From NCBI GenBank assembly GCA_019459185.1, contig JAIBEO010000101.1, positions 1-37,783 on the forward strand: a stretch of 37,783 nucleotides of DNA. The letters are read 5' to 3'. The notes under the pieces are model-generated. The model searched no databases, had not been told where the DNA came from, and saw only the letters and a list, made by a program, of their open reading frames with translations. Positions 2,807 through 21,123 of the stretch are shown piece after piece. The position numbers were made by a program, and so were the translations under genes. Numbering within the stretch: the first letter of the stretch is position 1; each line of letters starts with the position of its first letter. Source of the stretch: Rhizobium sp. GTDB lineage: Bacteria; Pseudomonadota; Gammaproteobacteria; Xanthomonadales; Xanthomonadaceae.

Positions 2807-2866
2807 GAACGCGCCAACCTAGGCTTGCGGCACCAGCCGCGGGGTTCCATGACGAGGAGAGCGGTA

Positions 2867-3400
2867 ATGAGCAACGGCAACGGAGTCACGGCGGCCATTT
2901 CCAGCGCCGCCGACAGCGTCAGCGAGAAGGCCCAGGAGATCGGCGGCGCCATCGCCCACCAGGCGGACGTCGTGGTGAAGGCGGCCAAGAAGAAGGCCGC
3001 GCCGGTGATCCGCAAGGCCAAGGCGCAGGTGAAGAAGGCCGAGAAGTCCGACGCCGGCAAGGCGGTGAAGAAGGCCGTCGCCGGCGCGAAGAAGAAGGTC
3101 AAGGCCGCGGTGAAGGCGGTCGAGGCCAAGGTTGGAGGCAAGAAGGCGGCGCCCAAGAAGAAGGCCGCCCCCAAGAAAAAGGCCGCGGTGAAGAAGGCCG
3201 CGCCGAAGAAGAAGGCGGCCGCCAAGAAGGCCCCGGCCCGCAAGGCCGCGGCCAGGAAGGCTGCGCCGAAGAAGAAGGCTGTCGCCAAGAAGGCGCCGGC
3301 CCGCAAGAAACCGGCCGCCAAGAAGGCGGCGGCGAAGAAGGTCGCCAGGAAGCCGGCGGCCCGCAAGACGACGGCCCGAAAGGTTGCCAGGAAGCGCTAA
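2867..3400 (+). CDS. Histone H1-like lysine/alanine-rich nucleoid protein
   Basis: The 177-residue product begins with a short ordinary segment, about residues 1-40 ([20 protein letters not shown]). The rest is almost entirely Lys, Ala, Pro and Arg in [10 protein letters not shown]-type repeats, as in AlgP/HctB-like bacterial H1 proteins, which bind and compact DNA through their charged tail. ATG 2867 was chosen because GAGGAG lies at the right distance upstream; an in-frame ATG at 2825 lacks a good site. The gene sits 60 nt after nrdJa and before nrdJb, so it is probably co-transcribed with the reductase. Such repeats change length easily. Function is inferred from composition only. Confidence 0.85.
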
Positions 3401-3432
3401 AGCCTGAGGCTGTCCCGATTGTCGTACCCCGT

Positions 3433-3456
3433 CCCCCCGCCGTCCGCGGCGGGGGG
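3433..3456 (+). other. Strong GC hairpin between histone-like gene and nrdJb
   Basis: A perfect 9-bp stem (3433-3441 with 3448-3456) closes a 6-nt loop in the gap between the two genes. No T-tract follows, so it is not a standard intrinsic terminator. It could pause polymerase or protect mRNA ends and so adjust relative expression within the operon. Confidence 0.5.
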
Positions 3457-3502
3457 CTCCGGGCGAAATCCCCCCGCACCACATAAGCGAAAAGAACCGA
3501 GC

Positions 3503-4294
3503 ATGGCCATCAAGATCAGCAAGAAAATCAAGGGTTACAGCGTCCAGAAGCCGGAAGACAAGGCCAAGGAGGCTGCCGCACCCGTCGCCGCGCCCGTGGT
3601 CGTGCAGGAGCCGGAATCGAACATCATCCACATGCACGAGAAGGTCGAGCGGCCGGAAGTGCTGGTGGGTTCCACCTACAAGATCAAATCCCCGCTGGTC
3701 GAACACGCCATGTACGTGACGATCAACGACATCGTGCTCAACCCGGGCACGGAACACGAACTGCGCCGTCCGTTCGAGGTGTTCATCAACTCGAAGAACA
3801 TGGACCACTTCCAGTGGATCGTGGCGCTGACCCGCATCATGAGCGCCGTGTTCCGCAAGGGCGGCGACGTCACCTTCCTGGTGGACGAGATGAAAGCGGT
3901 GTTCGACCCGCGCGGCGGCTACTTCAAGGCCGGCGGCGTGTACATGCCGTCCATCGTGGCCGAGATCGGCTCGGTGGTCGAAGAGCACCTCAAGTCGATC
4001 GGCATGATCCTCGACCCGGAGCTGGGCGAGGAGCAGAAGCGCCTGATCGCCGAGAAGCGCGCCGCCTACGAGGCCCGCGCAAAAAAAAAGTCCAGTGATT
4101 CCGGCCTGAGCGGTGCCCCCGCCGGTTCCGGCACCGAAGGCGCCCGCGGCGCCGACGAGGCGGTGCAGGTGACCGGCGAGGGCGCCTCTTTCCCGCCCAG
4201 CGCCACCATGTGCTTCAAGTGCAACACCAAGGCCACCGTCATCATGGACGGCTGCGCCACGTGCCTGAATTGCGGTTATTCGAAGTGCGGTTGA
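3503..4294 (+). CDS. nrdJb: Class II ribonucleotide reductase subunit NrdJb (C-terminal redox and zinc-ribbon part)
   Basis: The 263-residue protein completes the split B12-dependent reductase. Residues about 40-190 form the conserved TSCPD-like region ([33 protein letters not shown]). A low-complexity linker follows, then a Cys tail with C237, C240, C251, C254, C257 and C262 ending in GYSKCG. In single-chain class II enzymes this tail binds zinc and passes reducing power from thioredoxin to the active site. ATG 3503 begins [14 protein letters not shown], typical of the family; its ribosome site is weak. A tract of nine A (4081-4089) encodes lysines just before the linker, and both shifted frames stop within ten codons. 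The next gene starts 20 nt downstream. Confidence 0.92.
4081..4089 (+). other. A9 slippery tract in nrdJb
   Basis: Nine consecutive A occur inside GCA AAA AAA AAG, although AAG is the preferred lysine codon in this operon. An extra A gives KKKVQ then TGA (4096-4098). A lost A gives KKSPVIPA then TGA. Either slip would make a protein of about 198-201 residues without the cysteine tail. Whether slippage happens cannot be told from sequence. Confidence 0.5.
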
Positions 4295-4314
4295 TTCTTT
4301 TGGGAGTGAGATGA

Positions 4315-6279
4315 ATGGGAGAGGGTAGCGAGACCCCGGTAATCAGTTGGTTTGATGAGCCGATTAGGAAGTCGGTCAACTCTGTGTTCTCGGGTCTCAA
4401 CTCTGCAGTAGAAGCTCTCGATCTGTTCAACAGATATCGAGACTCCCATTTCAAGATGCTTTGGGAGGCTGTTGGGAAAGTAAAAGTGCTGGGCATGGCG
4501 AGCCCGATGCAGCTGTCAGATTTCTACTTCCCGGCTCAAGTGTCTTCCGATATCAAGCGCCGCCTCTATCAAGAAGAGTGGCTTCAGCCGAGCGGTCCGC
4601 AAGCTAGTTCGAAGACTCAGAGGCTTCGTGCGGTCGATGGTACCGCCTACGTAGAGAAGTCAGATCGGCTTGTGGTTCTGGGTGGCCCAGGTGCGGGTAA
4701 GACCACGTTCTTGAAGCACCTGGCACTCTCCTACAGCAAAAAGGAAATCTTTGAGTCGACGAAGTTGGTCTCATCAAAGTTGCCCTTCTACGTTTCGCTT
4801 CCGGATTTTTCGAAGTTTGAAGGGGATCTCTTTGACTTCATCTGTGCCCCTCTTGTCAAAAGGGAGGATCCTCACGCTAAGGCTTTCATTACTCGAGCCG
4901 TTAGGAAGGGGCTCGTTGCAATTCTCTTGGATTCTTTGGATGAGGTTCCCCTATCTACAAGAAACCAAGTGACAGCAAAGATTCGTGAGCTTGCAGCCAC
5001 CTATCCTGAAGCGAAGATCGTTGTGTCGTGCAGAACTGCGGACTACACAGACGTCTTGAGTGCGTTTGATGAGGTCGAGCTAGTTCGTCTTTCCGCAGAT
5101 GCAGTAAAGAAGATTGTAAAAAGTTGGTTCGCGAACGACCGAAAGGCCGCGGAAGAATTGGTGCAATTGATCCAGGCTGACTCGGGTCTGGCTGGGCTTA
5201 CAGAGACGCCGCTGCTGCTTAGTCTGCTATGTATCCAATTCAAGCATGACCTTCAGCTTCCTAGAAGGCGCGTAGAGGTATACAAGCGTTGCGTTGAGAC
5301 CCTGCTCCGGGATTGGGATACATCAAGGGGGTTTAGGCGATCGACGGCATACGAATCCTTGTCGGATGATCACAAAGAGCGGTTGTTTGAGCATGTGGCC
5401 GGCACTTCGCTTCACTCAGATCAGGCTTATGTGATTCCCAAGAAGAAGCTTTGCGAGCTCACTTCAAGCTACATCCGCAAATTGGGACTGGAGTCCGAGG
5501 ACGCAGAAGGCGTCATCAGTGAGATTGAGCGTCATCACGGAATTATTGAGCAGCATGCAATGGAAGCGTTTTGCTTCAGTCATGCCTCAATTCATGATTA
5601 CTTCGCAGCTCGCTACGCGCTTCATCAGAGGAAGGATATGGAGTGGGTCAAGACTCGGCTGGAGGCCGAGTCATGGGCGGGGGTCATTGAGTTTATTTGC
5701 GGGCTGCACCCAAATCCGGAGCCAATATTTGACCTTATGGCCCAGAAGGCTGGTCTCGCCAGCCTGAGAAACTTCCCCGCTGTTGAGCGAAGAGCCAAGC
5801 TCTTGTATCTGATTTACCGTTGCCTTGCGGTTGGTCCAATTCTTGAGCCTGAAAAGGCGGCAGAGATCTCGGATCATATTGCCAACTCAATTGTGGCTTT
5901 TACTGCGGTCCTGGCTGAGGCGAAGGTTTACCCGATGTGTGCGCTCAATGGGCAGGGCGTCCGCCATCCATATTTCTTTACCGGTGTGCGGCGCCCAACG
6001 CTGCAATCGACCCTGTTGCCATTTAGGCGCCTTACGAATGAAATATTGATGAGCCCCATCCAGAGGTACGCAAAGACCGCCCTGGGTCGTGCGGACAAGA
6101 TTGCGGAGAAGGGTTTGGGTAATTTGTCTGAGCTGTCCGCGTATATGAATCTGGTTGTACCGCTCGCAAAAGCTGACCCGGTCGCAGTTATGGAGCGTCT
6201 TGAGATCGCGAGATCTATGTCATCTGGTCAGTGGCTGAATCAAATTATCGATGAGTCTCTGTCGGTGATTCGTCAGTAA
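4315..6279 (+). CDS. NACHT-domain STAND NTPase, probable antiphage (bNACHT/NLR-like) protein
   Basis: The 654-residue protein has an N-terminal segment (about 1-90, with the VKVLGM motif seen before many bacterial NACHT domains). The NTPase follows: Walker [10 protein letters not shown] (123-131), Walker B ILLDSLDE (203-210) with the extra acidic residues typical of NACHT, and sensor VSCR ending at R240. TPLLLSLLC (about 298-306) and [15 protein letters not shown] (about 421-435) are NACHT helical and winged-helix hallmarks. About 195 C-terminal residues match nothing I recognise. They may be a sensor or a SNaCT-type domain known from bNACHT proteins. No nuclease, TIR or pore effector is recognisable. 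Bacterial NACHT proteins protect against phage; that role here is inference. GC is about 50-57% in sampled lines, well below its flanks, indicating transfer. ATG 4315 follows GGGAGTGAG. Confidence 0.88.
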
Positions 6280-8861: not shown

Positions 8862-8876
8862 TGGCACGCTTCTTGC
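8862..8876 (+). promoter_or_regulatory. Sigma-54 (RpoN) promoter
   Basis: TGGCACG-CTTC-TTGC equals the sigma-54 consensus TGGCACG-N4-TTGC. The invariant GG (8863-8864) and GC (8875-8876) are separated by the required 10 nt. Transcription would begin near 8888 and read into the giant repeat-protein gene. Sigma-54 promoters need an AAA+ activator and in xanthomonads often serve pili, flagella and exopolysaccharide genes. Confidence 0.8.
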
Positions 8877-8887
8877 CATAAGGACCC

Positions 8888-9136
8888 TCAGGCGGACACA
8901 GATCCGCCCGGGAGGCGGGTGGTTTAGGGGGCGCCGGGCCTGCAAGGCCTGGCGACTGCGTTTGGGGATGATCCCGCAAGGGGTCCTGTTCGACACCTGA
9001 CACTTGGCGACCCGGAACCGGGTAAGGCAGGCGCACTGGCTGCGCCTGCCTTACCCGGTTCCGTGCCGTTGCACGCCTGCATCCCGAGAGCGCCACCGGG
9101 CAACCGGTGCCCGTGCCCACGAACGGATACAGGTCA
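8888..9136 (+). promoter_or_regulatory. Structured 5' leader of the giant surface-protein gene
   Basis: About 249 nt lie between the predicted start site and ATG 9137, with several helices. GGCGGA 8891-8896 pairs with TCCGCC 8903-8908, an alternative to CCGCC 8904-8908 with GGCGG 8914-8918. Next is a 9-bp stem 8932-8940 with 8946-8954. A 6-bp stem capped by a GCAA tetraloop follows (8970-8975 with 8980-8985), and finally the 23-bp palindrome at 9013-9063. I recognise no known riboswitch class. Exclusive helices near the 5' end suggest a switch, but this is untested. Confidence 0.45.
9013..9063. repeat. Perfect 23-bp inverted repeat with 5-nt loop
   Basis: Arms 9013-9035 and 9041-9063 are exact reverse complements around CTGGC. 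No T-tract follows, so it is not a typical intrinsic terminator. It could be a REP/BIME-like mobile palindrome, a protein-binding site or a stable hairpin in the leader of the downstream gene. It ends 73 nt before the start codon. Confidence 0.8.
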
Positions 9137-12100
9137 ATGAGCAAATCGAAAGCCTCGCCCTTCGCCCGCCTCGGCTTCGCCGCCCTGGCCCTCGCGGCCG
9201 GCCTGCTGCCGGTGCTGGCGGAGGCCTCCAGCACCATCCGCAGCTTCGACCAGCGCTACCAGTTTACGGGCCGCGCGGATTCGACGCTGGTCGGCAACCA
9301 GCTGCTCAACTGTTCCGCCGCGGCTTCGGGTTGCACCTCTGCCCGCAACGGCACCGGCAACAACAACAACTTCAACATGGGCTACGTGGACGTGGACGCA
9401 GATGGCGCCACGTTCAACTCCAGTACCGCGACCCTGTCCCTGCCGGCCGGCTCGACCGTGCTGCGGGCCTACCTTTACTGGGGCGCCGACACCAGCGGCG
9501 GCAGCGGCGGCACGGCCGCGCCCACGCCGGCCAACCGCGGCCAGGTGCGCCTTTCCGCCGCGGGTGGCGGCTACACCACCGTGTCCGCCACCACGATCGA
9601 TGCCACCGGCAATCGCTACAGCGGCATCGCCGACGTCACCGCCCTGGTCGTGGCAGCCGGCAATGGCGCCTACGCCGTGGCCAATGTCCAGGCCGGTACC
9701 GGCCAGGACCGTTACGCGGGTTGGGGCCTGGTGGTGATCTACGCCAATGCCAGCCTGCCGCTGCGCAGCCTCACGCTGTTCGACGGTTCGCTCAACATCA
9801 ACGCTTCGGCGCCCAACAGCATCACCACCCCGGTGTCCGGCTTCCGCACGCCTTCGACCGGCGCGGTGGACGCCCGCATCGGCCTGATCGCCTTCGAGGG
9901 CGACAACAACTTCACCGGCGACCAGTTCCTGGTCAACGGCAGCAACATCAGCGACGCGCTGAACCCGACGACGAACATCTTCAACTCGACCAACTCGCGC
10001 CTGGGCGTGGCGCAGTCGGGCCGCAACCCGCTGCAGTCGAACATGCTCGGCTTCGACATCGACTACATCCCGGTCGCGGCGGGCGTCATCGCCAACAACG
10101 ACACCTCGGCCAGCCTGACCTTCACCACCAGCAGCGAGACCTACTACCCGATCGCGCTGCTGTTCCAGACCAACGTCTACGAGCCGGAGATCGTCACCAA
10201 TTTCAGCAAGGCCGCCACCGACGTCAATGGCGGCGAGTTCCGCCCGGGCGACATCCTCGAGTACACCATTTCGCTCAGCAACACCGGCGACGACGCCTCC
10301 GACCAGACCGTCATCACCGACCCGCTGCCGCTGGGCCTGACCTACGTGCCCGGCACGATCGAAGTGCTGACCGGCCCGAACGCCGGCGCCAAGACCGATG
10401 CCCCCGGCGACGACCAGGCCGAGTACGACGCCGGCAGCCGCACCGTCACCGTGCGCGTGGGCACCAGCGCCGACGCCGCCACTGGTGGTCGCGTGACGCC
10501 GGTGCCGCAGGCCAATTCGTCCACATCGCTGCGCTTCCGCGCCCAGATCGACCCGGTGCAGCCCGACGGCGCCGCGCTGTCGAACATCGCCGGCATCAGC
10601 TACGTCGGCGCCACCAGCGGCACGCCGGCCACCGGCTCGAGTTCCCCTTCGACGGTCAATGTCTCGCGCGACGCCGACCTGGCCATCAGCAAGACCGGCC
10701 CCGCCAACGTCGCGGCCGGCGGCCCGCTGCAGTACGTGCTCACCGTCACCAGTCTCGGCCCCGACGCGGCGGATGGCGCCACGGTCACCGACAACATGCC
10801 GGCCGGCATCACCGGCGTCAGCATCACCTGCGCGGCCACCGGTGGCGCGGTCTGCCCGGACACCACGGGCCTGACCACGCTGTCGGCGCTGGCGGTCCCG
10901 ACGTTCCCGTCGGGCGGCCAGCTGACCTTCACCATCGACGGCACCGCGCCGGCCGCCGCCACCACGCTCAGCAACACCGGCACAGTCGGCGCGCCCGCCG
11001 GCACCAACGACCCGACCCCGGGCAACAACAGCGCCGGCCCGGTGGACACCACCGTGCAGGCCGCACTCGACCTGGCCACCACCGGCACGCTCACGACCGC
11101 CGGAACCATCCGCACGGGTGACGCGGTGGCCTATGCATTCACGGTCACCAACAACGGCCCGGTCGCCGCCACCGGCGCACCTTTCGCGCTGCCGATGCCG
11201 TCCGGCCTGGCCGGTGCCAGCTGGACGTGCGCCCCGGTGCCGGCCTGCGGAACCGGCAGCGGCACGGGCGATATCGCCCTGTCGCTGACCCTCGCCAATG
11301 GCGAAGCCCTGACCATCAACATCACCGGCACCGCGCCGGCCACCACGCCCGCGACCATCGGCGCCGCCACCGGCACCGTTTCGGCGCCGGCCGGGCTAAG
11401 CGACACCGACGCCAGCAACGACAGCGCCACCGTGCCCGCCATCACCGTGCAGGCCCGCGACGTCGTCGCCACCAATGATTCCGGCACCGTGGCCAATGGC
11501 GCCGCCGGCGGAACCGCCGTTGCGAACGTGCTGGCCAACGACACGCTCGACGGCAACCCGGCGACGCTGGCGACCGTGTCGCTGTCGCAGGTGTCCACCA
11601 CGAATCCGAACGTCACGCTCGACCCCGCCACCGGCGTGGTGATCGTGGCCCCCGGCACGCCCTCGGGCAGCTACACCGTCGTCTACCAGATCTGCGAACT
11701 GGCCAATCCCACCAACTGCCAGCAGGGCACGGTCACCGTCACGGTCACCAACACGCCGCCGGTAGTGCAGGACGACAGCGTGAGCGTCGTCGAATCGAGC
11801 AGCGGCCATGCCGTGGACGTGCTCGCCAACGACAGCGACGCCGAGGACGGCGCGCCGGTGGTCACCGTGGCCAGCGGCAGCAGTGCCAACGGCGGCAGCT
11901 TCAACTGCACCGCCACCGGCTGCAGCTACACGCCGGTGCCGGGTTTCACCGGAACCGACAGCTTCACCTACGAGGCCTGCGATGCCGGCGGCGAGTGCCG
12001 CACGGCCACGGTGGACGTCACCGTGGTGGCGCGCACCCTGGCCATCACCGCCACTCCGGCCTGCATCGCCGACGCGGCCTACCTCGACTACAGCATCGCC

Positions 12101-15100
12101 GGCGGCAACTTCGACGCCACGGGCCTGGACGCCACCATCGAGTGGGTCGACAGCCTCGGCACCGTCGTGCAGACGCTGTCGAACCAGCCGCTCAGCGGCC
12201 AGCTGCTGTGGCCGGGCATGGTGCTCACCGGCGGCGTGCCGACCGACTGGCCGGGCTGGGTGCTCACCGGCGGCGTGTGGGTGCAGGCGGCGGACGGCTT
12301 CGAAAACGTGCGCCCCAACGCCACCGTGCGAATCACGGTGAACCCGACCCAGGACGTGGTGGTGGCCTACCCGCCGGCCACCGCGGTCTGCGCCGCCGCG
12401 CCGCCCGCCAACGCGGCGCCGCTGGCCGTCGACGACGCCGGCGCCACCGTGGGCGTGGCCCCGGTGACGACGGACGTGCTGGCCAACGACAGCGACCCGG
12501 AAGCGGGCCCGTTGGCGGTGTCCATCGCCGCGACGCCGGGCAATGGCAGCGTGGCGGTCAACGCCGACGGCAGCATCACCTACACGCCGGCCGCAGGATT
12601 TCAGGGCACCGACACCTACCAGTACACGATCACCGACGCCGCCGGCCTGACCGCCACGGCCACGGTCACCATCACGGTCGGCTGGCTGCCGCTGCTGCCG
12701 AGCGACGATTCCGCCACCGTGGCTTCCGGCGCCGCCGGCGGCACCGCCGTGGCGAACGTGCTGGGCAACGACACGCTCGACGGTGGCCCGGCGACGCTGG
12801 CGACGGTTTCGCTCTCGCAGGTGTCCACCACGAATCCCAACGTGACGCTTGATGTCGCCACCGGTGCGGTCAACGTCGCCCCGGGCACCCCGGCGGGCAC
12901 CTACACCGTGGTTTACGAGGTCTGCGAATTGGCGAACCCGGCCAACTGCGAACAGGCGTCGGTTACGGTCACCGTGGGCGCGGCCGTCATCGACGCCGCG
13001 GCCGACACGGGCACCGTGGCTTCCGGCGCGGTCGGTGGCACGGCCGTCGCCGATGCCCTGGCGAATGACACGCTGGGCGGTTCCGGCGCCACGCTGGCAA
13101 CGGTTTCGCTGTCCCAGACCGCGACCACGAATCCGAACGTGACGCTCGACGCTGCAACCGGCGCGGTCAGCGTCACCCCGGGCACCCCGGCGGGCACCTA
13201 CACGGTGACCTACCAGGTCTGCGAACTGCTGAATCCGACCAACTGCGACACGGCGTCGGTGACCGTGACCGTTGGCGCCGCCGTGATCGACGCGATGGAC
13301 GACACCGGCACGGTGGCTTCCGGTGCCGCGGGCGGCACGGCCGTCGCGAATGTGCTGGTCAACGACACCCTCGACGGTTCGCCGGCGACGCTGGCGACGG
13401 TCTCGCTGTCCCAGACCGCGACCACGAATCCAAACGTGACGCTCGACGTTGCGACCGGCGCGGTCAGCGTCGCCGCTGGCACGCCGGCGGGCACCTACAC
13501 GGTGACCTACCAGAGCTGCGAACTGCTGAACCCGGCCAACTGCGACACCGCGTCGGTGACCGTCACCGTTGGCGCCGCGGTGATCGACGCGGTGGACTAC
13601 ACCGGCACCGTGGCTTCCGGCGCGGTCGGTGGCACGGCCGTAGCCGATGTCCTGGCGAATGACACGCTGGGAGGCTCCGCCGCCACGCTGGCGACGGTCT
13701 CGCTGGCGCAGACCGCGACCACGAATCCAAACGTGACGCTCGACGTTGCGACCGGCGCGGTCAGCGTCGCCGCTGGCACCCCGGCGGGCACCTACACGGT
13801 GACCTACCAGATTTGCGAACTGCTGAATCCGACGAACTGCGACACGGCGTCCGTGACCGTGACCGTTGGCGCCGCGGTGATCGATGCCGTGGATGATGCG
13901 GGCACCGTCGCCTCCGGCGCCGCCGGCGGCACGGCCGTCGCGAATGTGCTGGTCAACGACACCCTCGACGGTTCGCCGGCGACGCTGGCCAACGTGTCGC
14001 TGGCCCAGACTGCTACGACCCATCCTAACGTGACAATGGATCCGGCCACTGGCACGGTGAACGTCGCCGCGGGCACCCCGGCGGGCACCTACACGGTGAC
14101 CTACCAGATCTGCGAGCTGCTGAACCCGACCAACTGCGACACGGCGTCGGTGACCGTGACCGTCGGTGCCGCCGTGATCGACGCGGTGGACGACATCGGC
14201 ACGGTGGCTTCCGGTGCCGCGGGCGGCACGGCCGTCGCGAATGTGCTGGTCAACGACACCCTCGGTGGTTCGTCGGCGACGCTGGCCAACGTGTCGCTGG
14301 CCCAGACTGCCACGACCCATCCTAACGTTACCTTGGATCCGGCCACTGGCGCGGTGAGCGTCGCCGCGGGCACCCCGGCGGGGACCTACACGGTGACCTA
14401 CCAGGTCTGCGAGCTGCTGAATCCGACGAACTGCGACACGGCGTCCGTGACCGTCACCGTCGGCGCCGCCGTGATCGATGCCGTGGATGATGCGGGCACC
14501 GTGGCTTCCGGCGCGGTCGGTGGAACGGCCGTCGCCTATGTCCTGGCCAACGACACGCTGGGCGGTTCGCCGGCGACGCTGGCCACGGTTTCGCTGACGC
14601 AGACAGCCACGACCCACCCGAGCGTGACGCTCGACGTGGCGACGGGTGCCGTGAACGTCGCCGCGGGCACCCCGGCGGGCACCTACACGGTGACCTACCA
14701 GATCTGCGAGCTGCTGAACCCGGCCAACTGCGACACGGCGTCGGTGACCGTCACCGTCGGTGCGGCAGTGATTGATGCCGTGGACGACACCGGTTCGGTG
14801 GCTTCCGGTGCTGCGGGTGGTGTCCCGGTTGCGAACGTGCTCGCCAATGACACGCTGGGCGGTTCGCCGGCCACGCTGGCCACGGTTTCGCTGACGCAGA
14901 CCGCCACGACCCACCCGAACGTGACGCTCGACGCTGCAACCGGCGCGGTCAGCGTCACCCCGGGCACCCCGGCGGGCACCTACACGGTGACCTACCAGAT
15001 CTGCGAGCTGCTGAACCCGGCCAACTGCGACGCCGCCACGGCTTCCGTAACGGTCAACGCGGCCGTAATCGACGCCGTGGATGACACCGGCACCGTCGCC

Positions 15101-17587
15101 TCCGGCGCCGGCGGCGGCACGGCCGTCGCCGATGTGCTGGCGAATGACACGCTGGGCGGTTCCGCCGCCACGCTGGCGACGGTCTCGCTGTCCCAGACCG
15201 CAACGACCCACCCGAACGTGACGCTCGATGTCGCGACTGGCGCGGTGACTGTCGCCCCGGGCACCCCGGCGGGCACTTACACGGTGACCTACCAGATCTG
15301 CGAACTGCTGAATCCGGCCAACTGCGACGCCGCCACGGCTTCCGCAACGGTCAATGCGGCCGCAATCGACGCCACCGACGACACCGGCACCGTCGCCTCC
15401 GGCGCCGCCGGCGGCACGGCCGTCGCCAATGTCCTGGCAAACGACACGCTGGGTGGTTCCGCCGCCACGCTGGCCACGGTTTCGCTGACGCAGACCGCAA
15501 CAACCAACCCGAACGTGACGCTCGACGTGGCGACGGGTGCCGTCTCCGTCACCGCGGGCACCCCGGCGGGGAGCTATGTCGTCACCTATCGCATCTGCGA
15601 ACTGCTGAACCCGGCCAACTGCGACATCGCCACCGCCACCGCCGCCGTCGACGCCGCGCCCATCGACGCGGTCGACGATGCCGGTATCGTCGCCAATGGT
15701 CAGCACGGCGGCATCGCCGTCGCCAACGTGCTGGGCAACGACACGCTCGGCGCCGCCGCCCTGGCGCCGGCGCAGGTATCCCTGTCCCTGGTGCGCAGCG
15801 GCAGCGCCAACGTCACGCTCGACCTGGCCACCGGTACCGTCAACGTGGCCCCGGGCACCCGCTCGGGCACCTACCGCCTCACTTACGAAATCTGCGAGCT
15901 GCTCAATCCCGGCAATTGCGACCGCGCAGTGGTCGTGGTGCGGGTGCAGGCGGCGGCCATCATCGCCGTCGACGACGCCGGCAGCGTGGCCTCCGGCGCG
16001 GCCGGTGGCACGGCGGTGGTCGACGTCCTGGCCAACGATACCCTCGACGGCCAGCCGGCCACGCTGGCCAATGTCACCTTGTCGCAGTTCGCGACCACCA
16101 CCCCGGGCGTCACGCTCGATCCCGCCACTGGCGCCGTGCAAGTCGCGCCCGGCGTCGCCCCCGGAATCCATGTCGTCGAGTACCGCATCTGCGAGCGCCT
16201 CAATCCGGGCAACTGCGACAGCGCCTACGTCGTCGTCACGGTCCTGGCCGAGGATCCGGCGGCGCCGCAGCTGGGCCTGGTGGACGACGAGGCCGGCACG
16301 CCGCAGGACACCCCGGTACGCGTGCCGGTGCTCGGCAACGATCTTCTTGGCGAGGGCGTGATCATCCCCGGCGAAGTGACCGTTTCCATCGCGTCGGGTC
16401 CGGCCAACGGCACCGTGGTGATCGAAGCCGACGGCAGCATCACCTACACGCCGTCGCTGCACTTCAGCGGCACGGACACCTTCAGCTACCGGGTCTGCCG
16501 CGTGGCCGAGCCCTCGGTCTGCGACGAGGCGGTGGTGCGCGTGGTGGTGGCGCCGGGTATCGTCACCGCGCCCGACCAGGCCGTGGCCGGTTCCCAGGCC
16601 AGCCCGGTGGTGGTGCCCCTGTACGGCGTCTCCACCAGCACCGGCGTGCCGCTCGACCCGGGCAGCGTGCAGATTGTCGCACCGCCCGCGCACGGTACCG
16701 TCGTGGTCAATGCGGACGGCAGCGCCACCTACGTGCCCGATCCCGCCTTCCACGGCACCGACGCCTTCGAATACCGCGTCTGCGACCAGTCCGTGCCGAC
16801 CCCGGTTTGCGATACCGGCCGCGTGGTCATCACGGTCGAAATGGCGGCGCCGCAGCTGCGCCTGGCCAAGAGCACGCCGGCCACCACCGTGCGCATCGGC
16901 GACTACGTGCGCTACGAAGTGGTGGTGGAGAACACCGGCATCGCGCCGGCCACCAGCGTGACCGTGGTGGACGTGCCGCCGGCGGGCTTCAGCTACGTCG
17001 AAGGCTCGCTCACGGTGCAGGACGCCGACGGCGTGCACGGCCTGGCCGGAACCAGCCCGCTGCGCGTCACCGGCGTGGACATCCCGGCCGGCGGCCGCGC
17101 CACCATCGGCTACCTGCTGCGCGTCGGCGCCGGCGTCGGGCCGGGCGAGCACACCAACGTGGTCAGTGCCATCGACACCACGGGCAGCGCCGTCGGCAAC
17201 ATCGCCAAGATCGGCGTGACCCTCGAGGGTGACCCGATGGTCGAGGAAAGCCTGGTGCTGGGCACCGTGTTCCTCGACGCGAACGGCGACGGCCGCCAGC
17301 AGCCCGGCGAGCCGGGCCTGGCCGGCGTGCGCCTGGCGACCGTGGAAGGCCTGGTGGTCGAAACCGACGTGCGCGGTCGCTACCACCTGGCCGGCCTGGA
17401 CGGCGGCAACCCGCTGCGCGGCCGCAACGCCATCCTGAAGGTGGACGTGGCCACGTTGCCGCCCGGCAGCCGCTTCACCACCCCCAATCCCCTGGTCCGT
17501 CGCATCACGCCGGGCCTCCCGGTTCGCTTCGACTTCGGCGTGCAGTTGCCCGCCGACGGCGATGCCACGACCCCTGAGCTGCGCTGA
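9137..17587 (+). CDS. Giant secreted multidomain adhesin-like protein (DUF11, Big_9/cadherin-like, 99-residue repeats, SdrD-B-like)
   Basis: The 2816-residue protein has a signal peptide (cleavage likely after AEA, residue 30). An N-terminal globular domain follows (to about 350), then three DUF11-like domains (about 355-770) and a first 99-residue repeat (about 780-875). Two Big_9/VCBS-like domains (VLANDSD...GTDSFTYE) flank a unique segment (about 965-1090). Twelve tandem 99-residue repeats with NDTL and Cys-x7-Cys (CELLNPxNC) run from about 1190 to 2380. Two more Big_9-like domains, a DUF11 domain and an SdrD-B-like domain with a calcium-loop signature (LDANGDGRQQPGEPGLAGV, about 2713-2731) finish it. 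There is no LPXTG, T1SS-type glycine repeat or membrane anchor, so export to the surface probably needs the barrel protein encoded 11 nt downstream. Adhesion is inferred from architecture. Confidence 0.85.
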   Translation: MSKSKASPFARLGFAALALAAGLLPVLAEASSTIRSFDQRYQFTGRADSTLVGNQLLNCSAAASGCTSARNGTGNNNNFNMGYVDVDADGATFNSSTATLSLPAGSTVLRAYLYWGADTSGGSGGTAAPTPANRGQVRLSAAGGGYTTVSATTIDATGNRYSGIADVTALVVAAGNGAYAVANVQAGTGQDRYAGWGLVVIYANASLPLRSLTLFDGSLNINASAPNSITTPVSGFRTPSTGAVDARIGLIAFEGDNNFTGDQFLVNGSNISDALNPTTNIFNSTNSRLGVAQSGRNPLQSNMLGFDIDYIPVAAGVIANNDTSASLTFTTSSETYYPIALLFQTNVYEPEIVTNFSKAATDVNGGEFRPGDILEYTISLSNTGDDASDQTVITDPLPLGLTYVPGTIEVLTGPNAGAKTDAPGDDQAEYDAGSRTVTVRVGTSADAATGGRVTPVPQANSSTSLRFRAQIDPVQPDGAALSNIAGISYVGATSGTPATGSSSPSTVNVSRDADLAISKTGPANVAAGGPLQYVLTVTSLGPDAADGATVTDNMPAGITGVSITCAATGGAVCPDTTGLTTLSALAVPTFPSGGQLTFTIDGTAPAAATTLSNTGTVGAPAGTNDPTPGNNSAGPVDTTVQAALDLATTGTLTTAGTIRTGDAVAYAFTVTNNGPVAATGAPFALPMPSGLAGASWTCAPVPACGTGSGTGDIALSLTLANGEALTINITGTAPATTPATIGAATGTVSAPAGLSDTDASNDSATVPAITVQARDVVATNDSGTVANGAAGGTAVANVLANDTLDGNPATLATVSLSQVSTTNPNVTLDPATGVVIVAPGTPSGSYTVVYQICELANPTNCQQGTVTVTVTNTPPVVQDDSVSVVESSSGHAVDVLANDSDAEDGAPVVTVASGSSANGGSFNCTATGCSYTPVPGFTGTDSFTYEACDAGGECRTATVDVTVVARTLAITATPACIADAAYLDYSIAGGNFDATGLDATIEWVDSLGTVVQTLSNQPLSGQLLWPGMVLTGGVPTDWPGWVLTGGVWVQAADGFENVRPNATVRITVNPTQDVVVAYPPATAVCAAAPPANAAPLAVDDAGATVGVAPVTTDVLANDSDPEAGPLAVSIAATPGNGSVAVNADGSITYTPAAGFQGTDTYQYTITDAAGLTATATVTITVGWLPLLPSDDSATVASGAAGGTAVANVLGNDTLDGGPATLATVSLSQVSTTNPNVTLDVATGAVNVAPGTPAGTYTVVYEVCELANPANCEQASVTVTVGAAVIDAAADTGTVASGAVGGTAVADALANDTLGGSGATLATVSLSQTATTNPNVTLDAATGAVSVTPGTPAGTYTVTYQVCELLNPTNCDTASVTVTVGAAVIDAMDDTGTVASGAAGGTAVANVLVNDTLDGSPATLATVSLSQTATTNPNVTLDVATGAVSVAAGTPAGTYTVTYQSCELLNPANCDTASVTVTVGAAVIDAVDYTGTVASGAVGGTAVADVLANDTLGGSAATLATVSLAQTATTNPNVTLDVATGAVSVAAGTPAGTYTVTYQICELLNPTNCDTASVTVTVGAAVIDAVDDAGTVASGAAGGTAVANVLVNDTLDGSPATLANVSLAQTATTHPNVTMDPATGTVNVAAGTPAGTYTVTYQICELLNPTNCDTASVTVTVGAAVIDAVDDIGTVASGAAGGTAVANVLVNDTLGGSSATLANVSLAQTATTHPNVTLDPATGAVSVAAGTPAGTYTVTYQVCELLNPTNCDTASVTVTVGAAVIDAVDDAGTVASGAVGGTAVAYVLANDTLGGSPATLATVSLTQTATTHPSVTLDVATGAVNVAAGTPAGTYTVTYQICELLNPANCDTASVTVTVGAAVIDAVDDTGSVASGAAGGVPVANVLANDTLGGSPATLATVSLTQTATTHPNVTLDAATGAVSVTPGTPAGTYTVTYQICELLNPANCDAATASVTVNAAVIDAVDDTGTVASGAGGGTAVADVLANDTLGGSAATLATVSLSQTATTHPNVTLDVATGAVTVAPGTPAGTYTVTYQICELLNPANCDAATASATVNAAAIDATDDTGTVASGAAGGTAVANVLANDTLGGSAATLATVSLTQTATTNPNVTLDVATGAVSVTAGTPAGSYVVTYRICELLNPANCDIATATAAVDAAPIDAVDDAGIVANGQHGGIAVANVLGNDTLGAAALAPAQVSLSLVRSGSANVTLDLATGTVNVAPGTRSGTYRLTYEICELLNPGNCDRAVVVVRVQAAAIIAVDDAGSVASGAAGGTAVVDVLANDTLDGQPATLANVTLSQFATTTPGVTLDPATGAVQVAPGVAPGIHVVEYRICERLNPGNCDSAYVVVTVLAEDPAAPQLGLVDDEAGTPQDTPVRVPVLGNDLLGEGVIIPGEVTVSIASGPANGTVVIEADGSITYTPSLHFSGTDTFSYRVCRVAEPSVCDEAVVRVVVAPGIVTAPDQAVAGSQASPVVVPLYGVSTSTGVPLDPGSVQIVAPPAHGTVVVNADGSATYVPDPAFHGTDAFEYRVCDQSVPTPVCDTGRVVITVEMAAPQLRLAKSTPATTVRIGDYVRYEVVVENTGIAPATSVTVVDVPPAGFSYVEGSLTVQDADGVHGLAGTSPLRVTGVDIPAGGRATIGYLLRVGAGVGPGEHTNVVSAIDTTGSAVGNIAKIGVTLEGDPMVEESLVLGTVFLDANGDGRQQPGEPGLAGVRLATVEGLVVETDVRGRYHLAGLDGGNPLRGRNAILKVDVATLPPGSRFTTPNPLVRRITPGLPVRFDFGVQLPADGDATTPELR
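12704..16282 (+). repeat. Tandem 297-bp coding repeats (12 units, plus one separate copy at about 11474)
   Basis: Units start at 12704, 13001, 13298, 13595, 13892 and so on at exactly 297-bp spacing to 15971, with the last unit ending near 16282. Central units are nearly identical in DNA, while the last two have drifted. Each encodes VDDxGTVASGAxGG, NDTLxGxxATL, NVTLDxATGxV, GTPAGTYTVTYQ and CELLNPxNC. The array is prone to recombination and to assembly collapse, so the copy number here may not be exact. Confidence 0.9.
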
Positions 17588-17598
17588 GGCCGGCCCCG

Positions 17599-20500
17599 AT
17601 GAATTTCCGAATGAAGCTGCTCGACCTGACCCTGATCGGCCTGCTGTCCGCGGGCCTGGCCACGCCGGAAGCGCTGCAGGCGGCCGAAGCCGGCCGCGCC
17701 CTTGAAACCTCCGATGCCGCGCCCGTGCGCGCCGTCGGGCGCCACGTGGTGGACCTGCCCGGTGGCGGCGTCGCCTGGGCGGTGGAAGACCCGCAGCCGG
17801 CGGACCCGCGCCTGTCGGTGGCGGGGCCGGCCACGGCGCCGGTGCGCGACGGCCGTGTCGCCGGTCCCGTGCGCTTCCAGGCCCACGCCAACTACGGCGC
17901 CTTCATCGAGAAGATGGAGGTGGTGGTGTTCGACGGTCGCGATGCCGACCTGGTCGCGCCGCTCGCCACGCTGCCGCTGGGTCGCGACGGCCTGCCGGCG
18001 ACGGAGTGGGACGGTCGCCTCGACGGTGGCCGCCGCCTGCTGCCCGGCGACCAGCTGCGTTTCCTGCTGCGCGCCCATGGCGCCGGCGGCGAAGTGGATG
18101 AGACCCACGCCCAGCTGCTCACGCTGGTGACGCCCGAGGAGCACGCGCGCGGCCAGCAGGCCTTGCGCGATGACATTTCGCGCGAGCGTGGCAGCGCCCT
18201 CTCGGCCGAGCAGGCCGAGCGCGAGCAACTGCAGGCCGGCGCGCTGTCCGGCAACGGCCTGCGCGTGCAGTCGATCCCGCTGTATGGCTCGCGCGTGCGC
18301 CTGCACGGCCGCGGCCTGGCGCCGATGGCGCCGCTGCGCATCAACGGCGAACCGGTGCCGGTGGACGGCGAGGGCTACTTCAGTACCGATTACCTGGCGC
18401 CCGTCGGCCCGCGCCGCTTCGAGTTGTCCACCGGCAGCGGCGCGCCGACCCCGCTGGACGTGGACGTGACCGGCCGCTACCTGTTCCTGGTGGCGCTGGC
18501 CGACCTGACGCTGTCCGAGGGCAATGCCAGCGGCAACCTTGAGCCGCTGGCCGGCGATGAGCGCTACGAGGACGGCTTCCTGTCCGAAGGCCGCCTGGCC
18601 TTCTACCTCAAGGGCAAGGTGAAGGGCCGTTACCTGGTGACGGCGCAGGCCGACACCACGGAGCGCGAACTCGACCAGATGTTCGACGGCTTCCTCGACG
18701 CCGACCCGCGCGACGTGTTCCGCCGCCTCGACCCCGATGCCTACTACCCGGTCTATGGCGACGATTCCACCACCGTGCGCGACGCCGACACCCAGGGCAA
18801 GCTGTACGTGCGCGTGAACTGGGACCGCAGCCAGGCGCTGTGGGGCAACTTCGCCACCGGCATCGGTGGCACCGAGTACGGCCAGTACCAGCGTTCGCTC
18901 TACGGCGCCGGCCTCGACTACAAGTCGCGCGCCAGCACCGCGCTGGGCGACGCCCGCACCGAGCTGCGCGGTTTCGTTTCCGAGGCGCAGAGCGCGCCCG
19001 GCCACAGCGAGTTCCTGGGCACCGGCGGCAGCCTGTACTACCTGCGCCACACCGACCTGCTGCCGGGTTCGGAGCAGCTGGTGCTGGAGCTGCGCGACGA
19101 GCGCACCGGCCGCATCGAGTCGCGCATTCCGCTGCAGCCGGGCGCCGACTACGAGATCGACTTCCTGCAGGGCCGCGTGCTGTTGACGCGCCCGCTGTCG
19201 CAGGTGGCGCACGAGAACGCCCGCAGCCTGACCCGCGACGGACTGCTCGACGGCTACACCCAGGTGCTGCTGGCCGATTACGAGTACGTGCCGCAGGGCT
19301 TCGAGGCCGACCAGGTCGGCGCGGGCCTGCGCGGCCGCCGCTGGTTCGGCGAACACGTGGCCGTGGGCGCCACCTACGTGGACGAGAATCGCGCCGGCGA
19401 GGATTACCGCCTGGCCGGCGCCGACCTGACCCTGCAGGCCGGCCGCGGTACTTACCTCAAGCTCGAGCACACCCGCAGCGACGCCACCGCGGCGCCGGTC
19501 TTCTTCTCCGACAACGGCGGCCTCAGCTTCAGCCGCCTGAACCCGGTGGCCGTGGCGCGTACCGGCGAGGCCAGCGCGGTGGAAGCGCGTGCGAACCTGC
19601 GTGAACTGGGCTGGACCCGCCGCGACTGGACCGCGGGCGCCTGGTGGCGCGACGTGGACGCCGGCTTCTCGGTCTCGCGCTTCGACACCGGCCTGCCGGT
19701 GCGCGAGGCCGGCGCCGAGTTCGCGGGCGAGTTCGGCGAGGACCTGCAGCTGCTCGGCCGTGCCACCCGCGCCGAACGCGGCGATGCCCGCCAGGACAAC
19801 CTGCAGCTCACCGCCGACTGGCGAGCCACCGAACGCGATCGCTTTGGCGCTGAACTGCGGCACGTGCAGGAAACCGGCGCCGGCTTCGACCAGGAGGGCC
19901 TGCTGGCCGCGCTGAGCTACCGTCGCCAGGCCACCACCACGCTGGAGCTGTACGGCATCGCCCAGGCCAGCCTGAACGAGCAGGGCGGTTACGAGGACAA
20001 CGACCGCCTGGCGCTGGGCGCGCGGCGCAGCTTCGGCGAGCGCTCCACCGTGGGCCTGGAACTGGGCAGCGGCGACCGCGGCGATTCCGCGCGCCTGGAC
20101 GCCGAGTTGGGCCTGTCGGCCACGCACAGCGTCTACGGCGGTTACACCTGGAGCGCCGACACCACTTCGCAGCGGGTCGCCAGCGCCTTCGACCAGCGCC
20201 AGGCCGACGGCTGGACGCTGGGCCAGCGCTGGCGGGCGTCCAACCGCGTCAACGTGTTCAACGAAAGCCAGTCGCTGCGCGATGCGGCCACGGGCAGCGA
20301 CGGCATCAGCCACACCGTGGGCGTGGATCTGTTCCCGGCCCAGGGCTGGCAGCTGGGCGCCACCGTGACCGACGCCAGCCTGGCTGGTGCCTCGGGCCAG
20401 GTCGATCGGCGCGCCTACAGTGTGTCAGGCGGTCGCACCGACCCGGGCATGCAATGGGCGAGCAAGCTTGAATACCGCGAGGACGAGGGCGCCGAGCGGC

Positions 20501-21123
20501 GCGAGCAGTGGGTCACCACCCACCGCCTGATGTTCAAGCTCAACGAGGACTGGCGCGTCGCCGGCCGACTCAACTGGGCCGACACCCAGGACCGCATCGA
20601 TCCGGCCGCCGACGCGCGTCTGGTGGAAGGCAACGTCGGCGTCGCCTGGCGCCCGGCCGACCGCAGCGACCGCGCGCTGCTGGCGCGCTACACCTATCTG
20701 CTCGACGAGGCCTCGCTGGGCCAGGAGGGCACGCAGCAATACGACCAGCGCAGCCAGGTGCTGGCGGTGGAAGGCGTGTTCGGCCTGGGCGCCCACTGGA
20801 GCCTGGCGCCGAAGCTGGCCAGCCGCTGGGGCGAATTCCGCCTCGACCGCGGCGTGGGGGCCTGGCTCGACAGCCGCGCCGATTTCATGGCGCTGCAGCT
20901 GCGCTACCACCTGCCCGGCGGTTGGGACGCGCTGGCCGAACTGCGCCAGCTCGACGTGCGCCAGGGCGGCGTGCGCCGCGGTGGCCTGCTGGGCGTGGAC
21001 CGCCAGCTGGGCGAGCACTTCAAGGTGGGTGTCGGCTACAACTTCACCGACTTCAGCGACGACCTCACCGACCTCGGCTTCGACCACCGCGGCTTCTTCC
21101 TGAACCTGGCGGGCTTCTACTGA
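17599..21123 (+). CDS. Large outer-membrane beta-barrel protein, partner of the giant surface protein
   Basis: The 1174-residue protein begins with a signal peptide (MNFRMKLLDLTLIGLLSAGLATPEALQA). A periplasmic beta-rich region follows to about residue 300. The rest alternates polar and aromatic strands and ends LNLAGFY, a C-terminal aromatic beta-signal for BAM. YYPVYGDDSTTVRDADTQGK and LYVRVNWDRSQALWGNF are motifs I associate with outer-membrane proteins encoded beside DUF11 proteins. PGADYEIDFLQGRVLLTRPL (about 514-533) resembles a motif found in SprA-type and other large barrels. The start lies 11 nt after the previous stop, so the two are translationally linked. Export or anchoring of the giant protein is inference. 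ATG 17611 is an alternative start. Confidence 0.8.
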   Translation: MNFRMKLLDLTLIGLLSAGLATPEALQAAEAGRALETSDAAPVRAVGRHVVDLPGGGVAWAVEDPQPADPRLSVAGPATAPVRDGRVAGPVRFQAHANYGAFIEKMEVVVFDGRDADLVAPLATLPLGRDGLPATEWDGRLDGGRRLLPGDQLRFLLRAHGAGGEVDETHAQLLTLVTPEEHARGQQALRDDISRERGSALSAEQAEREQLQAGALSGNGLRVQSIPLYGSRVRLHGRGLAPMAPLRINGEPVPVDGEGYFSTDYLAPVGPRRFELSTGSGAPTPLDVDVTGRYLFLVALADLTLSEGNASGNLEPLAGDERYEDGFLSEGRLAFYLKGKVKGRYLVTAQADTTERELDQMFDGFLDADPRDVFRRLDPDAYYPVYGDDSTTVRDADTQGKLYVRVNWDRSQALWGNFATGIGGTEYGQYQRSLYGAGLDYKSRASTALGDARTELRGFVSEAQSAPGHSEFLGTGGSLYYLRHTDLLPGSEQLVLELRDERTGRIESRIPLQPGADYEIDFLQGRVLLTRPLSQVAHENARSLTRDGLLDGYTQVLLADYEYVPQGFEADQVGAGLRGRRWFGEHVAVGATYVDENRAGEDYRLAGADLTLQAGRGTYLKLEHTRSDATAAPVFFSDNGGLSFSRLNPVAVARTGEASAVEARANLRELGWTRRDWTAGAWWRDVDAGFSVSRFDTGLPVREAGAEFAGEFGEDLQLLGRATRAERGDARQDNLQLTADWRATERDRFGAELRHVQETGAGFDQEGLLAALSYRRQATTTLELYGIAQASLNEQGGYEDNDRLALGARRSFGERSTVGLELGSGDRGDSARLDAELGLSATHSVYGGYTWSADTTSQRVASAFDQRQADGWTLGQRWRASNRVNVFNESQSLRDAATGSDGISHTVGVDLFPAQGWQLGATVTDASLAGASGQVDRRAYSVSGGRTDPGMQWASKLEYREDEGAERREQWVTTHRLMFKLNEDWRVAGRLNWADTQDRIDPAADARLVEGNVGVAWRPADRSDRALLARYTYLLDEASLGQEGTQQYDQRSQVLAVEGVFGLGAHWSLAPKLASRWGEFRLDRGVGAWLDSRADFMALQLRYHLPGGWDALAELRQLDVRQGGVRRGGLLGVDRQLGEHFKVGVGYNFTDFSDDLTDLGFDHRGFFLNLAGFY

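What the first reader, a model, noticed from the sequence alone, without database searches (positions are those of the whole stretch)
9137..21123. Two-gene giant surface protein and outer-membrane barrel cassette under sigma-54
A 2816-residue repeat protein with only a signal peptide for export is followed 11 nt later by a large barrel protein. There is no sortase motif, type I signal, autotransporter domain or anchor on the giant protein. The simplest reading is that the barrel carries or holds it at the surface, in the manner of two-partner secretion but with unrelated proteins.
Basis: partly seen in the sequence, partly recalled or inferred. Interest (0 to 1): 0.72.

Follow-up and report, generated by a model that had tools for sequence, protein, structure and literature searches.

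The report
Giant surface fibre with barrel partner
Two neighbouring genes make a very long fibre-like protein and a very large outer-membrane barrel that are nearly always found together and are sometimes fused into one protein, which points to an unnamed, widespread way for bacteria to hold, and perhaps export, long surface fibres.

Summary
In detail: a 2816-aa repeat protein (9137-17587) is followed after 11 nt by an 1174-aa barrel (17599-21123), and no known export or anchor domain was found on the giant. The pairing is real. Of 80 barrel relatives fetched with flanks, 72 have the same SdrD-type C-terminal domain directly upstream (68) or in the same frame (4); six are cut by contig ends, one (L137) has a DUF11-like neighbour without SdrD, one (L119) is an orphan. 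In a 398-genome phylum sample, 45 of 47 genomes with the SdrD domain also have the barrel. SdrD is more conserved (median identity 0.70) than the barrel (0.58); the stalk is not (0.23). Fifteen single-frame fusions were seen. The window's pair lacks it. Best reading: an adhesin-like fibre whose SdrD end docks in the periplasm on a barrel modelled with about 40 strands, which holds, and probably passes, it across the outer membrane. Docking, surface exposure and translocation are inferred, not shown. The sigma-54 site is plausible here but not conserved.

The parts
8862..8877 (+). sigma-54-like promoter site TGGCACG-N4-TTGC (one mismatch to TGGCACGNNNNTTGCW)
   Evidence: 49 of 100 shuffles of the whole window also give at least one; not conserved upstream of relatives
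9011..9065 (.). long hairpin in the leader; the two 22-nt arms 9014-9035 and 9041-9062 are exact inverted copies
   Evidence: z -5.2 for 8885-9136; only these two places in the held genome at up to 3 mismatches
9137..17587 (+). giant repeat protein, 2816 aa (DUF11 / Big_9 Ig-type fibre)
9137..9226 (+). Sec signal sequence of the giant (residues 1-30, by eye)
   Evidence: sequence
9227..10216 (+). N-terminal head region (to residue 360); relatives lie in other open frames of 552-1212 aa
   Evidence: 10 of 100 genomes, the window's own included; no Pfam family
10217..11506 (+). N-terminal DUF11 stretch (residues 361-790)
   Evidence: best DUF11 stretch 514-633
12704..16068 (+). tandem array of 297-bp (99-aa) Ig-type repeats, 11.3 copies, 81% matches, with a CE-NP-NC motif
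16832..17221 (+). last DUF11 domain (residues 2566-2695), conserved in relatives
17222..17554 (+). SdrD_B-like C-terminal domain (residues 2696-2806), the most conserved part of the giant among those measured; proposed docking domain
17599..21123 (+). outer-membrane barrel partner, 1174 aa, without a family in Pfam or NCBIfam
17599..17682 (+). signal sequence of the barrel protein (residues 1-28, by eye)
   Evidence: sequence
17746..18477 (+). N-terminal, presumably periplasmic part: beta (Ig-like) domains joined by helices (residues ~50-293)
   Evidence: secondary structure of the model
18478..21120 (+). barrel domain (residues ~294-1174), 40 strands of 8 or more residues in the printed model
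   Evidence: fold comparisons

Best explanation
The two genes are one functional unit for displaying a long surface fibre. The giant enters the periplasm by Sec. Its conserved C-terminal DUF11-SdrD end stays on the periplasmic side and docks on the partner, a very large outer-membrane barrel with N-terminal Ig-like domains. The N-terminal head and the variable Ig/DUF11 stalk lie outside, most simply having passed through the barrel. In most relatives an OmpA domain next to the SdrD domain ties this base to peptidoglycan; here that module is missing and the barrel alone, or an OmpA protein in trans, would hold the fibre. Shown: the pairing, the single-frame fusions, the conserved C-terminal domain and the OmpA module in varying places. 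Inferred: physical docking, surface exposure, exit through the barrel.
For: Close relatives: barrel in 25 of 100 genomes, own included. All 28 SdrD hits of at least 49 bits in the same 100 genomes (23 genomes) lie on the same contig as a barrel hit; in 27 of 29 fetched neighbourhoods SdrD is next to or in frame with the barrel; the other two (L050, L054) hold barrel fragments at or near contig ends. Wider set: 72 of 80 genome-contig loci. Phylum sample: 48 of 53 SdrD rows have a barrel hit within 15 kb on the same contig and strand, 47 of them 99-2041 nt before it; 45 genomes have both, 2 SdrD only, 12 barrel only, of 398. The barrel's start codon overlaps the giant's stop by 4 nt in 39 of 68. 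Fusions: L056, L064, L147, L149-L154, L156, L162, L135, L144-L146. Conservation over 55 loci: SdrD 0.70, barrel 0.58, stalk block 0.23. OmpA: on the giant in 57 of 68, on the barrel N-terminus (L053; weaker in L061 and L137), between SdrD and barrel in fusions (L150, L144; L135), or in the next gene (L163, L155). A DUF11 protein with an OmpA-like end is described as a putative fibrillar adhesin (PMC12617251, passages and section 2.4 read).
Against: No experiment places the giant outside the cell. Gene order and fusions show a shared function, not translocation. The docking model (SdrD plus barrel N-terminal domains of fusion L145) was uninformative: pTM 0.52, disordered linker. Four fusions keep a signal-like stretch with an AxA-type end between the halves, so these chains may be cut apart; hydropathy does not separate them cleanly from the other 11 (1.48-2.01 against 0.83-1.75). 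L119 has a barrel and no DUF11, SdrD or OmpA hit in its 10-kb flanks; in G279 the order is reversed; L137 lacks an SdrD hit. Nine of the 12 barrel-only genomes of the phylum sample were not looked into.
Confidence: 0.6

Rival explanations
1. The pair is an outer-membrane-to-wall scaffold: the giant stays in the periplasm, bound to peptidoglycan by OmpA domains in most relatives, and tethers or spaces the outer membrane through the barrel.
For: OmpA domain beside SdrD in 57 of 68 relatives; OmpA on barrels or in neighbouring genes.
Against: A chain of some 25-30 Ig-size domains would be far longer than the periplasm is wide (general knowledge); the stalk block varies freely (0.23) and holds near-identical repeats, as adhesins do; a published DUF11 protein with an OmpA-like end is read as a fibrillar adhesin (PMC12617251).
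Confidence: 0.17
2. The barrel is an assembly platform (usher-like) for several DUF11 proteins; the giant or the fused DUF11 part is only its base or first subunit, and small secreted DUF11-like proteins polymerise on it.
For: Some fusion operons carry several small genes with signal sequences and weak DUF11-type hits just upstream (L150, L152, L162; L064, annotated DUF11). The seven best aligned solved chains are ushers FimD/PapC (Z 13.1-17.3, rmsd 7.9-14.4).
Against: No small DUF11 gene among the 20 other window ORFs scanned. Barrel-fold matches of this kind are generic; no usher Pfam family was matched.
Confidence: 0.13
3. The barrel is an ordinary transporter (some homologues are labelled 'TonB-dependent receptor') and the giant leaves by another route such as type II secretion; the genes are neighbours for regulation only.
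For: Labels in public records; type II secretion can bring adhesins to the surface (PMC12802150, passages seen).
Against: No TonB-receptor Pfam domain; fusions of the two; near-obligate pairing.
Confidence: 0.1

Closest known systems
Gram-negative fibrillar adhesins with DUF11 (CLIPPER) stalks and an OmpA-like end, e.g. B9T28_05395 of Acinetobacter silvestris (PMC12617251)
   Same: Long secreted DUF11/cadherin-type stalk, N-terminal head, OmpA-like C-terminal anchor as in most relatives of the window's giant
   Different: 'barrel', 'secretion' and 'type V' gave no match in that paper's main text; whether that gene has a barrel neighbour was not tested; the window's giant lacks the OmpA part
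Two-partner secretion (type Vb)
   Same: Large exported protein plus outer-membrane barrel in one operon
   Different: No TPS domain and no POTRA or ShlB-type match; the conserved end is the C-terminus of the passenger
Classical autotransporter (type Va)
   Same: Fused forms have the order signal, passenger, C-terminal barrel
   Different: No autotransporter barrel family matched; barrel far larger in the model; OmpA domain between passenger and barrel in some fusions
Trimeric autotransporter AtaA (start of an abstract seen in the listing) with its peptidoglycan-binding partner TpgA (recalled)
   Same: Adhesin held at the outer membrane with a peptidoglycan-binding helper
   Different: Trimeric coiled-coil fibre with its own barrel; unrelated by what is known to me
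Chaperone-usher pathway (FimD, PapC)
   Same: Large barrel in an operon with Ig-type proteins; highest Z among solved folds
   Different: No usher Pfam match; rmsd large; a chaperone gene was not specifically sought
SprA translocon of type IX secretion
   Same: Very large single-chain barrel; third Foldseek match (E 1.4e-6)
   Different: No PDB chain of SprA matched the sequence profile at E up to 1; no type IX C-terminal family among the giant's Pfam matches

Membership tests
Two-partner secretion (type Vb) | TpsB barrel with POTRA/ShlB-type domains | tested here: not met
   No such family for the window barrel at E up to 0.1 in Pfam or NCBIfam
Two-partner secretion (type Vb) | N-terminal TPS (haemagglutination activity) domain on the passenger | tested here: not met
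   Not among the 12 Pfam and 4 NCBIfam families matched by the giant
Two-partner secretion (type Vb) | Passenger and barrel encoded together | tested here: met
Autotransporter (type Va) | C-terminal autotransporter barrel domain on the passenger | tested here: not met
   No match; fused relatives carry this barrel instead
Type I secreted large adhesins (LapA/BapA kind) | RTX repeats and the family's C-terminal model | tested here: not met
   No GGxGxD motif; NF045619 at 22.6 bits against a cut-off of 180, best stretch in the repeats
TonB-dependent receptor | Plug and TonB-receptor barrel domains | tested here: not met
   No such Pfam match for the window barrel or the L053 and L055 barrels
Chaperone-usher pathway | Usher sequence family | tested here: not met
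   No usher Pfam match
Chaperone-usher pathway | Usher fold | tested here: inconclusive
   FimD Z 17.3, rmsd 14.4, 364 residues; many other barrels have Z above 10
Type IX secretion SprA | SprA sequence family | tested here: not met
   Profile A2 against PDB chains: no SprA at E up to 1; no SprA Pfam match
Fibrillar adhesin with DUF11 stalk | Signal sequence, tandem DUF11/Ig stalk, long chain | tested here: met
   (signal sequence by eye)
Fibrillar adhesin with DUF11 stalk | C-terminal OmpA-like anchor | tested here: not met
   Absent in the window; present in 57 of 68 relatives
Fibrillar adhesin with DUF11 stalk | Surface location and adhesion | not testable with these tools
   Needs experiment

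The most novel reading that the evidence does not exclude
An unnamed outer-membrane secretion and anchoring pathway, found in several phyla: a barrel of some 36-40 strands that exports Ig-type fibres, either as one giant chain from a partner gene, as a passenger fused to the barrel, or with sets of small DUF11-like subunits, and fixes them to peptidoglycan through an OmpA module that has moved between fibre, barrel and a third gene.
Probability: 0.35. Interest if true: 0.9.

Novelty: new variant of a known kind. Interest (0 to 1): 0.68.

Why it matters
DUF11 fibres with OmpA-like ends are already described as putative adhesins, but the one such paper found here does not deal with how the chain crosses the outer membrane (the word 'secretion' does not occur in its main text). 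It would also question the 'TonB-dependent receptor' label that some of these proteins carry. If the strand count is right, it is among the largest single-chain barrels (SprA with 36 strands is the comparison I recall).

Tried and rejected
Sigma-54 control as a family trait: rejected. Known RNA in the leader: 13 matches up to E 1, none reaching its gathering score, mostly miRNA models fitting the hairpin. c-di-GMP link through neighbouring GGDEF genes: GGDEF found in the flanks of 5 of 80 loci, so the window's convergent GGDEF gene looks local. Docking of SdrD on the barrel's N-terminal domains using natural fusion L145: inconclusive. Sequence relatives of the barrel in the PDB: nothing better than E 0.57. 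Usher or SprA kinship by fold: generic barrel matches, left open. Acinetobacter fil operon as a relative of the fusion operon in L064: a lead only, not tested (no sequences at hand); FilF is listed there as a lipoprotein. The two Brucella papers opened were word-start matches (DUF1176, DUF1192, DUF1849).

Literature: eight searches. No listed title or abstract start described this barrel-fibre pairing; that is a statement about those listings only. Seen: PMC12617251 passages and section 2.4; PMC4751259, PMC12802150, PMC6304850 and PMC12343572 passages; the rest as listings.

Limits and dropped rows: the phylum searches scored at most 2 barrel and 11 SdrD candidates per genome, so a second or third barrel can be missed (G042:C67, found, is such a case). 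In one search I entered 53 of the 56 SdrD rows (three tandem repeats of one G199 gene left out) and 64 of the 73 barrel rows (later pieces of the same gene left out). The identity comparison used the 55 loci that had all three regions. In one search some of the 33 upstream regions may rest on a wrong start codon, and L141's is not a giant. One search missed the giants of L128 and L139 because a wrong frame was taken; they were put right. Of the 11 fusions called free of a signal-like stretch, five linkers were read in full (L056, L064, L147, L151, L156), the other six only around their most hydrophobic point; L149 and L152 are the least clear.
Full report
Observation. The window contains a 2816-aa ORF from ATG 9137 to 17587 and, after 11 nt, an 1174-aa ORF 17599-21123. 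The giant has a Sec-type signal sequence (by eye), a head of about 330 residues without a Pfam family, DUF11 domains, 12 copies of a ~99-aa Big_9-type repeat (11 of them in tandem), a last DUF11 domain and a C-terminal SdrD_B-like domain, and ends ten residues after it. No known export or anchor domain was found. The second protein has a signal sequence (by eye), no cysteine (the giant has 42), no named family and an aromatic C-terminal strand. The organism is close to Arenimonas (Xanthomonadales): a broken barrel up to 95% identical lies in an Arenimonas MAG (L134).

Pairing in close relatives. The barrel is in 25 of 100 genomes, own included, and single-copy in the own genome. I fetched 29 neighbourhoods; in 27 an SdrD-type protein lies directly before the barrel or in the same frame, and the other two (L050, L054) hold barrel fragments at or near contig ends. 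From the other side, a profile of the SdrD domain (A3) gave 39 hits in the same 100 genomes: 28 of 49 bits or more, all on the same contig as a barrel hit, and 11 under 40 bits, none beside a barrel hit and not examined further. Twenty-three genomes have both; the two with barrel only are G014 and G040, those of L050 and L054.

Pairing at distance. The SdrD domain is directly upstream in 68 and in the same frame in 4. Six are cut by contig ends (L106, L109, L124, L132, L133, L141). L137 has a DUF11-like, serine-aspartate-rich protein upstream but no SdrD hit. L119 is an orphan: no DUF11, SdrD or OmpA hit in the locus, about 10 kb on either side. In 39 of 68 the barrel's start codon overlaps the giant's stop by four bases. 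In 398 genomes drawn from the phylum, 57 have the barrel and 47 the SdrD domain; 45 have both. The two with SdrD only are G199, where the domain is repeated within another long frame, and G355, a 70%-complete genome. Of 12 with barrel only, two that I fetched carry a weaker SdrD match in the same frame (L151, L152), one is cut (L148) and nine were not examined. Fisher's test gives p about 1e-45, which ignores shared ancestry. Of the 20 neighbourhoods fetched from this sample, nine are fusions, nine have the giant upstream, one (L161) has it downstream and one is cut.

Fusions. One reading frame joins DUF11, SdrD and barrel in L056, L064, L147, L149-L154, L156 and L162. In these 11 I saw no clear signal-like stretch in the linker (highest 12-residue hydropathy 0.83-1.75), but this is a judgement by eye: five linkers were read in full, and the range overlaps that of four further fusions (L135, L144-L146; 1.48-2.01) whose linkers do hold a hydrophobic stretch ending in an AxA-type site. 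Those four chains may be cut in two; they still tie the halves in one translation product. L056 sits among unfused cousins (L055, L057, L058) whose giant ends in the same tail.

Where the constraint lies. Over 55 loci the last 85 residues of the SdrD domain have median pairwise identity 0.70, the barrel 0.58 and a 400-residue block of the stalk 0.23. A freely varying stalk on a conserved C-terminal domain beside a conserved barrel is what a docking domain would look like.

The moving wall anchor. After SdrD, 57 of 68 giants have a Pfam OmpA domain; eight, like the window, stop within 25 residues; the other three have longer tails without an OmpA match at E 0.001. In L053 two OmpA stretches are instead on the barrel's N-terminus, in L150 and L144 OmpA lies between SdrD and barrel of the fused chain, and in L163 and L155 it is the next gene. 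OmpA domains of this family bind peptidoglycan (general knowledge), so the SdrD end and the N-terminal side of the barrel are most likely in the periplasm. The window has no OmpA domain in either protein; the own genome has seven OmpA-family matches, none on this contig.

The barrel. AlphaFold2 with 61 sequences gave mean pLDDT 78.9 and pTM 0.73: N-terminal beta domains joined by helices, then 40 strands of eight or more residues from residue 294 to the end, counted from the printed secondary structure. The best aligned solved folds are ushers (Z up to 17.3, large rmsd); Foldseek lists FptA, a deinoxanthin-binding S-layer complex, SprA and LptD at E around 1e-6 to 1e-7. No PDB chain matches the sequence profile better than E 0.57. 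In plasmid records the homologues are called TonB-dependent receptor, OmpA family, outer membrane protein transport protein, DUF11 domain-containing or hypothetical protein.

Mechanism. Shown here: the pair, its tight gene order, its fusions, its conserved C-terminal domain and the varying place of the wall anchor. Inferred: docking of SdrD on the barrel, exposure of the stalk outside, exit through the barrel. The published description of a DUF11 protein with an OmpA-like end in Acinetobacter silvestris as a putative fibrillar adhesin, with an isopeptide-bonded DUF11 domain solved, supports the adhesin reading of the giant (PMC12617251). Rivals are a periplasmic scaffold, an usher-like platform for small DUF11-like subunits (some fusion operons do carry such genes), and mere neighbourhood.

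Regulation. The sigma-54-like site is good but not shared. The leader has a hairpin with two exact 22-nt arms, found nowhere else in the held genome. GGDEF neighbours are not a trend.

Verdict. The parts are of known kinds (Ig fibre, barrel, OmpA anchor) and the logic is like type V secretion, but the barrel family and the three-module arrangement were not in the libraries and paper listings searched. I rate it a new variant of a known kind, with a fair chance of being a distinct pathway.

Noticed in passing
window 4315-6279: NACHT-type NTPase gene in a stretch of lower G+C (0.53-0.56 against 0.65-0.69 on either side); PADLOC candidate model PDC-S60 at E 1.5e-7. Possibly an acquired defence gene.
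   Followed up: partly
window 9011-9065: Hairpin with two exact 22-nt inverted arms in the giant's leader; only these places in the held genome.
   Followed up: partly
L135, L144, L145, L146 (junction of SdrD and barrel): Single-frame fusions that keep an internal signal-like stretch with an AxA-type end; possibly polyproteins cut by signal peptidase.
   Followed up: partly
L150 1676-4949, L152 5065-7662, L162 3124-5750, L064 6951-10296: Several small genes with signal sequences and DUF11-type hits or labels directly upstream of the fused SdrD-barrel gene, as if fibre subunits and platform.
   Followed up: partly
L039 1069-2982: A 637-aa protein with the window giant's head domain (42% identity) and DUF11 lies directly downstream of the barrel.
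   Followed up: no
L137 3-2900: Upstream protein ending in a long serine-aspartate repeat like that of Gram-positive Sdr proteins, beside a barrel with an OmpA-like insert.
   Followed up: no
L134 (and L052, a contig of the same length) 2199-5678: Barrel gene 88-95% identical to the window's but broken into several frames.
   Followed up: no
G279:C1:1528727-1542409 (L161): Reversed order: barrel first, DUF11-SdrD giant after it.
   Followed up: partly
window 11396-17386 and 17380-20313, minus strand: Long open frames antisense to both genes (1996 and 977 aa), probably a by-product of G+C-rich codon usage.
   Followed up: no
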